From Gorillibacterium sp. (GTDB lineage: Bacteria > Bacillota > Bacilli > Paenibacillales > NBRC-103111), in the NCBI GenBank assembly GCA_014380705.1, contig JACMJI010000155.1:1-7219 (forward strand): a stretch of 7,219 nt of DNA, given 5' to 3'. Below, piece by piece: positions 4,338-7,219 of the stretch. How positions within the stretch are numbered: position 1 is the first letter of the stretch; every line of letters starts with the position of its first letter. The notes under the pieces were generated by a model, which was given only the letters and a program-made list of their open reading frames with translations, was not told where the DNA came from and searched no databases. The position numbers and the translations under genes were made by a program.

Positions 4338-5258
4338 GTGGTAAAGAAAATAAATGTTGCAAATGGTGTACTTCATGTCTCCGAAATTTCGCTTGGCTGT
4401 ATGCGGATTGCAGAATTATCCGCGAAAGAGGTTGATCTACACGTACATAGCGCGTTGGAGGTTGGTATTGATTTTTTTGACCACGCGGATATCTATGCTG
4501 GAGGAAAAGCAGAAGAAGTATTCGCCGAAGTGCTGAGCAACAGCCCAGGTCTGCGTGAAAAAATGATGATTCAAAGCAAATGCGGAATTCGCAATGGCCT
4601 TTTTGATTTCTCCAAGGAGCATATTCTGGCGTCAGTAGAAGGCATCCTTAAACGCTTAAAGACAGACTATCTAGATGTTCTCTTGCTTCACCGTCCTGAT
4701 ACCTTGGTAGAGCCGGAGGAAGTGGCTGAGGCATTCGACATTCTTGAACAGAAAGGGATGGTCAAGCACTTTGGTGTCAGCAACCAAAACCCTACCCAAA
4801 TCGAATTGCTCAAGAAGAATGTTAAGCAGAAGCTGTTGTTCAACCAGTTGCAGCTGAGTATTACAAATACAGGCATGATTGATGCAGGGTTAAACGTCAA
4901 TATGGCAAACCCAGCTTCCATTGACCATGACGGTGGTATCCTCGAGTACAGTCGCCTGCATGACATGACCATTCAACCCTGGTCGCCTTTCCAATACGGG
5001 TTTTTTGAAGGTGTCTTCTTGGACAATGATAAATTTCCTGAATTGAATAAAGTTGTCGACCGTTTAGCATTGGAAAAAGATGTTGCCAACACAGCGATCG
5101 CCATAGCATGGCTCCTTAGACATCCAGCAAAAATGCAGCCCATTGTAGGAACAACGAATACCAAGCGCTTGCTTGATATTGCAAAGGCTTCAGATATCAC
5201 ATTGACGCGACAGGAATGGTATGAAGTTTATCGTGCAGCAGGCAATAAACTGCCATAA
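4338..5258 (+). CDS. Aldo/keto reductase, YdhF-like
   Basis: Cytosolic NADPH-dependent oxidoreductase. The 306 residues match the E. coli YdhF type (about 298) along the whole length, including HADIYGG-like, SKCGI, HRPD, HFGVSN and RQ.W segments. The tetrad is seen as D48 and Y53 in FFDHADIYAGG, K81 in QSKCG, and H118 in LLLHRPD. IVGTTNTKRL near 270-280 is the C-terminal cofactor-phosphate segment. YdhF itself has no firmly established substrate. The GTG start is preferred because GGGGTGA (4324-4330) lies 7 nt upstream and protein similarity begins at the first residues. The gene stands alone, with its own MerR-type promoter and a terminator 43 bp beyond the stop. The promoter suggests induction by a reactive electrophile or aldehyde, which is an inference. 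Confidence 0.93.
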   Translation: MVKKINVANGVLHVSEISLGCMRIAELSAKEVDLHVHSALEVGIDFFDHADIYAGGKAEEVFAEVLSNSPGLREKMMIQSKCGIRNGLFDFSKEHILASVEGILKRLKTDYLDVLLLHRPDTLVEPEEVAEAFDILEQKGMVKHFGVSNQNPTQIELLKKNVKQKLLFNQLQLSITNTGMIDAGLNVNMANPASIDHDGGILEYSRLHDMTIQPWSPFQYGFFEGVFLDNDKFPELNKVVDRLALEKDVANTAIAIAWLLRHPAKMQPIVGTTNTKRLLDIAKASDITLTRQEWYEVYRAAGNKLP

Positions 5259-5300
5259 ATATCAGTTCATGATTCTTAGATACTTATAAGAATAACCAAG

Positions 5301-5338
5301 AGCCACGAGTATGGAAATTTCATACCTCATGGCTTTTT
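5301..5338 (+). terminator. Rho-independent terminator of the YdhF-like reductase gene
   Basis: AGCCACGAGTATG pairs with CATACCTCATGGCT, apart from one mismatch and one bulged C, around a short A/T loop. A TTTTT run follows (5334-5338). It lies 43 bp after the stop codon. Confidence 0.8.
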
Positions 5339-5354
5339 AATCTATTATTAAACG

Positions 5355-5392
5355 AAAAACGTCGACTGTGCATACGCACAATCGACGTTTTT
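5355..5392 (-). terminator. Strong hairpin terminator downstream of the tRNA-Leu remnant
   Basis: Arms of 17 positions (5355-5371 and 5376-5392) enclose a four-base loop. Read on the minus strand, all 17 pair, one as U-G; on the plus strand the same position is a C-A mismatch, so minus is the better-fitting direction. The stem ends in A5/T5, giving the T-run. It begins 15 bp beyond the last tRNA-like base and fits the original terminator of a minus-strand tRNA gene. Confidence 0.7.
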
Positions 5393-5406: not shown

Positions 5407-5453
5407 TGTCGGCGAGAGGACTCGAATCTCCACGGTTTCCCTCACGATTTTGA
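5407..5453 (-). tRNA. 3' half of a tRNA-Leu (CAA anticodon): probable attachment-site scar
   Basis: Partial, non-functional. On the minus strand the pieces run in tRNA order: T33 and anticodon CAA (5450-5453), A37-A38, 3' anticodon strand TCGTG (5443-5447), long class-II variable arm with GGG/CC (5432-5442), T-stem/loop GGAGA-TTCGAGT-CCTCT (5415-5431), 3' acceptor strand CGCCGAC (5408-5414), and discriminator A73 (5407), as leucine tRNAs have. The 5' half is missing: bases upstream of the anticodon loop do not pair with TCGTG, and no D-arm precedes. Position 53 is A where G is nearly invariant, breaking the last T-stem pair, and no full CCA follows (CTT instead). This is what remains at the far end when an element integrates at the anticodon loop and brings its own copy of the 3' half. 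Class (leucine) is confident; the att role is inferred. Confidence 0.72.
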
Positions 5454-5478
5454 TAATCGCATCATCGTTGCCTGCGTT

Positions 5479-5646
5479 ATGAGCCTCATTCGTTTGGGCT
5501 GCGTCTGCCGCTTCCTCATCCGCCTGTCCGGTGCGGATGAGGAAGCGGCGAAATACAAAAAGCGCGCCTGCAATGTCGTGCTGTTTTACATTTTGGCCGA
5601 GAGTATCTGGCAGGTGAAGGAAATCATCTTGTTTTACTACCGGTAG
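5479..5646 (+). CDS. Small hypothetical protein, one predicted membrane segment
   Basis: 55 residues, family not recognised. The N-terminal half is basic and cysteine-containing (LGCVCRFLIRL), a charged stretch DEEAAKYKKR follows at 20-29, and a hydrophobic segment of about 31-52 ends in YYR. Codon choice strongly favours G or C in the third position, unlike the genes at 1-5258 but like the kinase gene on its right, suggesting a real gene within imported DNA. No Shine-Dalgarno precedes the ATG, and the frame stays open back through the tRNA scar to a stop at 5401-5403. It may therefore be the 3' remainder of a longer gene cut at the element's end, or an inactive relic. A perfect inverted repeat (5507-5549) lies within it. 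Confidence 0.45.
   Translation: MSLIRLGCVCRFLIRLSGADEEAAKYKKRACNVVLFYILAESIWQVKEIILFYYR
5507..5549. repeat. Perfect 17-bp inverted repeat with 9-bp loop
   Basis: GCCGCTTCCTCATCCGC (5507-5523) and its exact reverse complement (5533-5549) flank CTGTCCGGT. It lies about 55 bp inside the tRNA scar and within the 55-residue ORF. No T-run follows on either strand, so it is not a standard terminator. Confidence 0.9.
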
Positions 5647-5711
5647 CGGAAAGCTTTTGCCTGAGAAGTGGAACGGCTGGGGATGAAACATAAGCAGATG
5701 GGAGCCACAGT

Positions 5712-5750
5712 AAAATCCCTGCAAATCCTCACTAGCCGGACTTCACAGGG
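5712..5750 (-). terminator. Possible terminator of the HipA-like gene
   Basis: On the minus strand CCCTG..AAGTCC pairs with GGATTT..CAGGG, with a small internal loop, and is followed by ATTTT, about 33 bp after the kinase stop codon. The stem is imperfect and the T-run short. The rest of 5647-5782 shows no gene I can support. Confidence 0.4.
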
Positions 5751-5782
5751 ACGATATGTTCTTGGGGTTTTACCCGCCTATT

Positions 5783-7042
5783 CTAGGATTGTTCCCAATC
5801 CTCCTCGTCTGGCACGCCGCTGTAGGCGATGTCCCCCTCAACATCCGTTTTTCGATCATCCGACCAAAGCAGGCTCTTGCGGGAATGGACAACCTCAGAC
5901 AGCATGGCGATCCGTTTTTGCAAGGCAAAGCAAAGGGCGTCACATCTGGCTTCATCAATAAAAAGCGAGCCGCGAAAAAGTTCTCTTATTTCCTCCTCGA
6001 TGCCTTGCAGCGCGGACAGGTCGAGCCAGTCAAAGGATGTCACCAGCTTGATTTGCTCACTGTGGTCCATCTTAAACGGCTTACAGGTCAGCTTTGCCGT
6101 CGATGAAATCAGCGACTGTGGCTTGGAAAACCAGAGGGATGAACCGCTGTCATAAATCGGAGCGGCCCCGATCCACTCCAGGGTTTCCGCATTTCGGATC
6201 ACGCCAAAATTGTTTTGGTGCCGGTCCTCATTGGCAATGATATAGTCCACGACTATCATGCGGTCTAGGAAATCTTTCATCCCGGAAATGCCCAGCGCCT
6301 CACAACAGTTCAAGTAATGCTGGTACACCGACACATGATTAGGCTTGTGCTGGGTCTGCATCACATACCATGCCGTAATCAACTCAGTCTCGGGAGTGAT
6401 GAAATTCTCACACACACTGTACGGATAATCGTCCTGCACCATCAGCGTGTAGGGAACATGGGAAATGCCCAGCCGCGCCATAATCCTGCTGGCAATCACT
6501 TCATTGTAGGGCTCCTGTTGGGTCGCGCCACTCCCCCCTTTAATGAGACAGCGTTTTCTGTCCAGAATACTCCATTTCTTTTTCAACCAGCCGTCCGAGG
6601 TATTATCCGGCGACATCAGGCTCATGTGCGCAGGTGAGCCTTTACCAAACAGTACATTACCTACATCATCGGAAAAAGGATTGTCGAAAAAGTTAACCTT
6701 GGACCAGTTTGCCTCCGAACCGGCGGGGCAAATCCAATAGTGGTCGGATAAACTCAAACCCAAGCTTTTTTCCAGCAGCTTTTGGGTGGTGCTGAGGTTG
6801 AGTTCAACAAGAGCTTCTCTAATTCCATCCCGGCTGGCAGGGATGGCGCGGCCTCTCCACCATTCATTTAGGGCGAAACGGTCGATTCGTCCCCGTTTAA
6901 CCGGTATTCCGGTGGGAACATGACGTGCTTCAACCACATGGCCTATAGCGGAAATCGCACAGGAGGCTTCGTCAAGCTCAATCTCGGCAACAAGGGTGTT
7001 CTTATGCATGAGAACGTATTTTTTGTGCAAGACATCCGCCAT
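5783..7042 (-). CDS. HipA-like Ser/Thr kinase, Firmicutes mobile-element type
   Basis: 419-residue protein with a HipA/PI3-4-kinase-like fold. HipA kinases phosphorylate cytosolic targets (glutamyl-tRNA synthetase for E. coli HipA); this one's target is unknown. Numbered from the ATG at 7042: an N-terminal region (about 1-145) includes ALNEWWRGRAIPASRDGIR. The kinase core then shows SPDNTSDGWLKKKW, lysine K168 in CLIKGG (probable ATP contact), E181 in EPYNEVIA, the catalytic loop N271-E-D273-R-H-x-N-N278, and YDSG with D298 (metal-binding, DFG equivalent). Active-site residues are all intact and no frameshift is seen. The ATG is chosen over the upstream TTG (7067-7069) because GGAG lies 8 nt ahead. 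The order of motifs recalls HipA-like proteins that follow excisionase-like helix-turn-helix genes in Firmicutes integrative elements. It could act as a toxin, phage defence or element regulator; no choice is possible from sequence. Confidence 0.85.
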   Translation of the reverse strand: MADVLHKKYVLMHKNTLVAEIELDEASCAISAIGHVVEARHVPTGIPVKRGRIDRFALNEWWRGRAIPASRDGIREALVELNLSTTQKLLEKSLGLSLSDHYWICPAGSEANWSKVNFFDNPFSDDVGNVLFGKGSPAHMSLMSPDNTSDGWLKKKWSILDRKRCLIKGGSGATQQEPYNEVIASRIMARLGISHVPYTLMVQDDYPYSVCENFITPETELITAWYVMQTQHKPNHVSVYQHYLNCCEALGISGMKDFLDRMIVVDYIIANEDRHQNNFGVIRNAETLEWIGAAPIYDSGSSLWFSKPQSLISSTAKLTCKPFKMDHSEQIKLVTSFDWLDLSALQGIEEEIRELFRGSLFIDEARCDALCFALQKRIAMLSEVVHSRKSLLWSDDRKTDVEGDIAYSGVPDEEDWEQS

Positions 7043-7058
7043 ACCATCCACTCCATTC

Positions 7059-7190
7059 TTAATCAGCAAAAGGTTCGAATAACCGGTTTGGTTTCCATTC
7101 CATCTGGTGAATGATGTTCCATTTGGCAGCCTCAGATGCTTCTATTATATCAATTTTGTGATGCATCAACCACGGCACTTTTTTATTCAT
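7059..7190 (-). pseudogene. Possible stump of an excisionase-like helix-turn-helix gene
   Basis: A 43-residue ORF ends 16 bp before the kinase start. Residues about 12-26 (IDIIEASEAAKWNI) look like the opening of the helix-turn-helix proteins that often precede this kinase type (..IKEASEKWNIS-RRVQ..). The usual recognition helix and the tail do not follow; the frame runs into IHQMEWKPNRLFEP and stops. No Shine-Dalgarno precedes the ATG at 7188-7190, nor the internal ATG at 7164-7166. It may be a deletion remnant, or a chance likeness over the kinase promoter. Confidence 0.3.
7144..7168 (-). promoter_or_regulatory. Extended -10 promoter and palindrome upstream of the HipA-like gene
   Basis: On the minus strand TGATATAAT (7144-7152) is a perfect TATAAT with the extended TG. 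A 10-bp palindrome TGATGCATCA (7159-7168) lies between it and the -35 position, where no good hexamer is found. Leader to the kinase start would be about 95 nt. The palindrome may be an operator. Confidence 0.45.
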
Positions 7191-7198
7191 AGAAAAAA

Positions 7199-7218
7199 GA
7201 GGTGTACGTCAAGTGATG
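7199..7218 (+). promoter_or_regulatory. Possible ribosome site and start of a gene running off the right edge
   Basis: GAGGTG (7199-7204) is followed 8 nt later by GTG (7213-7215) and then ATG (7216-7218). This is well spaced for a plus-strand gene divergent from the kinase. Only one or two codons are in view, so it cannot be tested here. Confidence 0.25.
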
Positions 7219-7219
7219 G

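What the first reader, a model, noticed from the sequence alone, without database searches (positions are those of the whole stretch)
5407..5453. tRNA-Leu half marks the integration scar of a mobile element
The minus strand carries tRNA-Leu parts in correct order from the anticodon loop to the discriminator base, with leucine-type long variable arm and A73, and breaks off exactly at position 32/33 of the anticodon loop. Anticodon-loop crossover is a known habit of tyrosine integrases. The orientation requires the element to lie to the right, where base composition and gene content also change. G53 changed to A and the lost CCA fit a decayed, untranscribed copy.
Basis: partly seen in the sequence, partly recalled or inferred. 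Interest (0 to 1): 0.75.

Follow-up and report, generated by a model that had tools for sequence, protein, structure and literature searches.

The report
Scar of a decayed conjugative element
A piece of Paenibacillus-like chromosome carries half of a leucine tRNA gene fused to the remains of a mobile DNA element that most likely had inserted into that gene; this is a known kind of insertion mark, here with a partly deleted element.

Summary
The finding holds. Window 5407-5453 (-) is the 3' half of tRNA-Leu(CAA), U33 to A73. In 12 of 13 matching Paenibacillus loci an intact tRNA-Leu(CAA) stands there, downstream of the same aldo/keto reductase gene. The 13th, P. camerounensis, carries at this site a 76-kb integrative and conjugative element (ICE): the same 3' half near the reductase, an integrase gene about 35 bp from the intact tRNA-Leu(CAA), then the tRNA operon. 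Two more genomes carry 52- and 59-kb ICEs of this family in tRNA-Leu(CAA), with the window's HipA-like gene (5783-7069) in the same orientation. In all three, parA, virD4 and trbL lie between scar and small pilin-like gene; that stretch (18-31 kb) is missing in the window, where a trimmed small gene starts right at the tRNA half. So this is the displaced tRNA fragment of an ICE that lost its scar-side conjugation module. Correction: missing CCA is no sign of decay; 12 of 13 intact relatives shown lack it. Not testable: this genome's own intact tRNA and integrase, since the 7219-bp contig ends and no genome is held. Known kind, new example.

The parts
4338..5258 (+). aldo/keto reductase gene, chromosomal flank
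   Evidence: PF00248, E 2.6e-52; relatives in Paenibacillus with tRNA-Leu(CAA) downstream
5407..5453 (-). 3' half of tRNA-Leu(CAA), U33 to A73: displaced target-gene fragment (attachment scar)
   Evidence: 93-94% to tRNA-Leu(CAA) genes; no whole tRNA
5454..5649 (+). trimmed small pilin-like gene of the ICE; its usual neighbour trbL is absent, and 5454-5456 aligns to the trbL stop codon
   Evidence: 92% DNA identity to G075 from 5479 on; 5454-5466 match 10 of 13; intact homologue has a sub-threshold T4SS_pilin match
5783..7069 (-). HipA-like kinase gene, ICE cargo, open frame of 428 aa
   Evidence: PF07804; 96% identical protein in the G075 ICE; homologues in complete ICEs G196 and G243

Best explanation
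An ICE with a tyrosine integrase inserted into the tRNA-Leu(CAA) gene at the end of a tRNA operon next to the reductase gene. Crossover in the anticodon region displaced the gene's own 3' half (5407-5453) to the far end of the element, beside the reductase, while the element's copy restored the tRNA at the integrase end, to the right and beyond the contig. The scar-side part of the element (parA/parB, transfer genes, virD4, trbL) was then lost, which joined the tRNA half to the small pilin-like gene and HipA. Shown: the tRNA half, its place, the empty and filled sites in relatives, the ICE identity of the right side and the missing stretch. Inferred: that the intact tRNA and the integrase exist in this genome, and that the loss came after integration.
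For: Empty site: intact tRNA-Leu(CAA) at 12 of 13 matching loci, and at 4 of the 8 reductase regions closest by DNA within 1.5 kb. Filled sites at the same locus: G005, G043, G058. Same ICE family in tRNA-Leu(CAA) with the same order and strand: G196, G243. HipA-like genes lie within 32 kb downstream of a tRNA-Leu(CAA) copy on its strand in 9 of the 10 genomes that have both on one contig. ICE DNA begins right at the tRNA half.
Against: No intact tRNA or integrase is seen in this genome (contig ends). The attachment-site arm found beside the scar in relatives is absent and no remnant of it could be shown. In most relatives the tRNA lies further from the reductase (about 0.4-10 kb) than here (about 150 bp, as in L006); 6 of the 19 Paenibacillus loci L001-L019 show no match in the stretch held. 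HipA in P. durus is not near tRNA-Leu(CAA) (788 kb).
Confidence: 0.82

Rival explanations
1. The integrase itself made the junction by using a secondary core inside the transfer operon (trbL end), so the missing part was never at this site or was cut out by site-specific recombination.
For: The tRNA part ends at U33 and ICE DNA appears to begin at the next base. ICEBs1 integrates at secondary chromosomal sites with up to 10-12 mismatches out of 17 (PMC3715440, passages).
Against: The trbL end of G075 shares only a short stretch (TGA, TCG) with the anticodon region (by eye). In 8 of 21 HipA loci trbL and the small gene are contiguous, and none of these shows a tRNA half there.
Confidence: 0.07
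2. The scar comes from a different, older element, and a fragment of a HipA ICE was brought beside it later by rearrangement.
For: The tRNA-Leu site is used repeatedly, with tandem insertions in G003 and G243 and an inverted scar with another arm in G052 and G056.
Against: HipA has the same strand and side relative to the scar as in the complete ICEs G196 and G243.
Confidence: 0.06
3. Assembly chimera joining chromosome and ICE reads.
For: The exact HipA and reductase proteins are each known from one contig of 7219 bases only.
Against: Reductase followed by tRNA-Leu is syntenic in relatives, so only the join 5453/5454 could be false; A53 suggests that the half is not part of a working gene.
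Confidence: 0.05

Closest known systems
tRNA-gene genomic islands with anticodon-centred attachment site (Islander, PMC4383910, passages read)
   Same: 3' fragment of a tRNA gene displaced, broken at the anticodon loop; 2083 of 3919 Islander islands are anticodon-centred and 3760 have a 3' fragment
   Different: Partner tRNA and integrase not visible here; the element is truncated at the scar side
ICEBs1 of Bacillus subtilis in trnS-leu2 (PMC3715440, passages read)
   Same: ICE in a leucine tRNA gene of a Bacillota; 17-bp stem-loop core with crossover in its 7-bp spacer (that this stem-loop is the anticodon arm is my reading, not in the passages)
   Different: Other ICE family (recalled); about 20 kb against 52-76 kb for the relatives measured here
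Paenibacillus tRNA-Leu(CAA) ICEs found here (G196, G243, P. camerounensis G005)
   Same: Same target gene; G005 at the same locus; G196 and G243 with the same trbL, small gene, HipA order and strand
   Different: They keep parA/parB, virD4, trbL and integrase; G005 has no HipA match

Membership tests
tRNA-integrated genomic island | tRNA gene fragment ending at a known crossover region | tested here: met
   3' half from U33
tRNA-integrated genomic island | Uninterrupted relatives have the intact tRNA gene at the place | tested here: met
   12 of 13 matching loci; 4 of 8 closest by DNA within 1.5 kb, the other three with full flanks further off
tRNA-integrated genomic island | Intact tRNA at the other end, same orientation | not testable with these tools
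   Contig ends at 7219, no genome held; met in relatives G005, G043, G058, G196, G243
tRNA-integrated genomic island | Integrase gene in the element | not testable with these tools
   None in 5454-7219; present in relatives G005, G196, G243
ICE (conjugative element) | Coupling protein and T4SS genes (virD4, trbL) | tested here: not met
   Absent where relatives have them; only the trimmed small gene remains. A copy beyond 7219 cannot be excluded
ICE (conjugative element) | DNA homologous to a conjugative element | tested here: met
   92% DNA identity over 5479-7203 to the G075 ICE with virD4 and trbL

The most novel reading that the evidence does not exclude
The join of U33 to the trbL stop codon, without the element's usual arm, was made by the integrase itself at a secondary core in the transfer operon. 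The integrase would then prune ICEs into short non-conjugative islands that keep a HipA-like kinase; HipA-like genes standing a few hundred bases to a few kb downstream of tRNA-Leu genes (CAA, CAG, TAA) in other genomes would be such end products.
Probability: 0.07. Interest if true: 0.45.

Novelty: new member of a known kind. Interest (0 to 1): 0.22.

Why it matters
It adds a well-anchored case of tRNA-Leu(CAA) as a recurrent ICE target in Paenibacillus, and shows that a 47-base half tRNA read by eye marked an element boundary correctly. It also gives a picture of how such an element decays: transfer genes gone, HipA-like gene still open.

Tried and rejected
The 25 bases 5454-5478 were tested as (a) remains of the tRNA 5' half: no better than shuffles (fraction 0.52); (b) the attachment-site arm of related elements: no better than random window positions (0.40 for the best arm, 0.81 for the mean); (c) a recurrent sequence: 2 of 394 family genomes at 3 mismatches, 0 in viral contigs for a 25-base pattern. 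They fit best as ICE DNA: the first 13 match 10 of 13; but a gapped alignment of all 25 gave fractions of 0.064 against G075 and 0.30 against P. durus, so this rests on the 13-base block and its position.

Rfam matches in the window (Plastid-ycf3, IsrM) lie far below gathering scores and were dropped. 'Excisionase', a name some sources give to HipA-like relatives, is not supported: Pfam gives HipA_C, NCBIfam nothing, PADLOC partial matches to six PDC-M03A models. Papers: one search found 0 papers for its three terms, and the 8 titles listed of 12 do not concern this element; both searches cover open-licence PMC papers only. The listings were seen; passages of two papers were read.

Full report
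Observation. The minus strand of 5407-5453 reads as a tRNA-Leu 3' half from U33 and anticodon CAA to A73. ARAGORN finds no complete tRNA in the window. The stretch matches tRNA-Leu(CAA) genes at 93-94% over 44-48 bases. Position 53 is A here and G in every row listed (that list was cut by the tool). Missing CCA is common: 12 of the 13 intact genes printed lack it, so it says nothing about decay.

Left flank. Gene 4338-5258 is an aldo/keto reductase with its closest relatives in Paenibacillus. Of the 80 loci kept, 13 carry the tRNA-Leu match downstream of the reductase. Twelve are intact tRNA-Leu(CAA) by ARAGORN; in 11 of these tRNA-Cys and tRNA-Gly follow, while L005 ends too soon. The 13th, P. 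camerounensis (L014), is a 3' half. Distances from the reductase run from about 0.16 kb (L006, close to the window's 0.15 kb) to about 10 kb (L005). Six of the 19 Paenibacillus loci L001-L019 show no match in the stretch held (L001-L004, L007, L013; L001 ends 148 bases after the reductase). Among the eight reductase regions closest by DNA (77-78%, L148-L155), four have an intact tRNA-Leu(CAA) within 1.5 kb (L148, L152, L153, L155), L151 ends after 148 bases, and three have none in that range. In these three it lies further off: G060 about 22 kb, G083 about 16 kb, G043 behind a scar and a 13.5-kb element.

Filled sites. Two patterns over 100 Paenibacillus genomes (half: 91 of 100 genomes match; intact gene: 61 of 100), with flanks read, gave halves without the 5' part in G002, G003, G005, G043 (two), G052, G056 (two) and G058, and one with 2 mismatches in G054. 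Not every genome that matched only the half pattern was resolved; G053, for example, has intact genes with a slightly different 5' half. At the reductase locus, scar and intact same-strand tRNA lie 76.2 kb apart in G005 (P. camerounensis), 13.5 kb in G043 and 22.4 kb in G058, with the intact gene on the side away from the reductase each time. In P. camerounensis the order is reductase, scar 135523, parA, parB, virD4, trbL, small gene, integrase ending at 211675-211678, intact tRNA-Leu 3' end at 211714, tRNA operon. The integrase matches PF00589 at 4e-28. parA lies within 0.3 kb of the scar in the five elements checked for it (G002, G005, G043, G196, G243).

Right side. From 5479 to 7203 the window is 92% identical to an ICE in genome G075. 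There the order is virD4 (PF02534), trbL (PF19597), a small gene with a sub-threshold T4SS_pilin match, HipA on the opposite strand, then a prepilin peptidase (PF01478) and a T2SSE-type ATPase (PF00437). Bases 5454-5466 match the same ICE at 10 of 13, at the trbL stop and small-gene start; 16 of 20000 shuffles and 67 of 10799 left-flank 13-mers do as well. So ICE DNA probably begins at the base after the tRNA half. The small gene has lost its start codon and 15 and 9 bases in gaps; the HipA frame is open.

Link between the two. Long HipA homologues were found in 7 of 100 genus genomes (15 had any match at E 1e-3) and 19 of 392 order genomes (E up to 1e-100), together 21 different genomes. Twenty of the 21 were searched for tRNA-Leu(CAA) (the partial match G365 was not). 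Ten have a copy on the HipA contig, one of them (G155) seen by ARAGORN only. In 9 of these 10 a copy lies upstream of HipA on the same strand within 32 kb; the exception is P. durus (G022) at 788 kb. In G003 and G056 the nearest copy is a half and the intact gene lies 17.9 and 8.5 kb away. Of the other ten, G429 and G026 have HipA 300-375 bases downstream of tRNA-Leu(CAG) and tRNA-Leu(TAA). G196 and G243 are complete: scar, parA/parB, virD4, trbL, small gene, HipA, integrase, intact tRNA-Leu(CAA), tRNA operon. From scar to trbL end is 18.3 kb in G196, 26.0 kb in G243 and 30.7 kb in P. camerounensis (from coordinates). The window has none of it. trbL and the small gene are contiguous in 8 of the 21 HipA loci, each held with about 1.5 kb of flank.

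Mechanism. Integration into tRNA genes by tyrosine integrases with an anticodon-centred crossover is well described: 2083 of 3919 islands in Islander, 3760 with a 3' fragment (PMC4383910, passages). ICEBs1 does so in trnS-leu2 with a 17-bp stem-loop core (PMC3715440, passages). The window fits as the far end of such an element after loss of its scar-side module. How the loss happened is not shown. TGA and TCG occur in both partners near the join (by eye), so a short-homology deletion is possible; integrase action at a secondary core is possible too; a chimera is not excluded.

Verdict. Observation confirmed; interpretation supported with two corrections. A new member of a known kind.

Noticed in passing
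L244 (G429:C4) and L144 (G026:C320): HipA-like genes stand 300-375 bases downstream of tRNA-Leu(CAG) and tRNA-Leu(TAA), same strand, without trbL beside them: the gene seems tied to leucine tRNA genes of several kinds.
   Followed up: partly
L083 (IMG/VR UViG_2881871051, 91,637 bases): A record held as viral looks like chromosome plus a HipA ICE: intact tRNA-Leu(CAA), trbL and VirD4-like genes, and by eye a group II intron reverse transcriptase at 12913-14784.
   Followed up: no
L217 and L132 (G052, G056): A tRNA-Leu 3' half in the opposite orientation with a different flanking arm lies 0.7 kb from the intact gene, suggesting a second element type at this site.
   Followed up: no
L081 (NZ_CP054613.1): A 2.7-Mb record labelled plasmid in P. 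cellulosilyticus carries 17 tRNA genes in the 24 kb fetched, so it may be chromosomal.
   Followed up: no
window 5300-5392: By eye, two hairpins, each followed by a run of T, lie between the reductase gene and the scar; possible terminators. Not folded.
   Followed up: no
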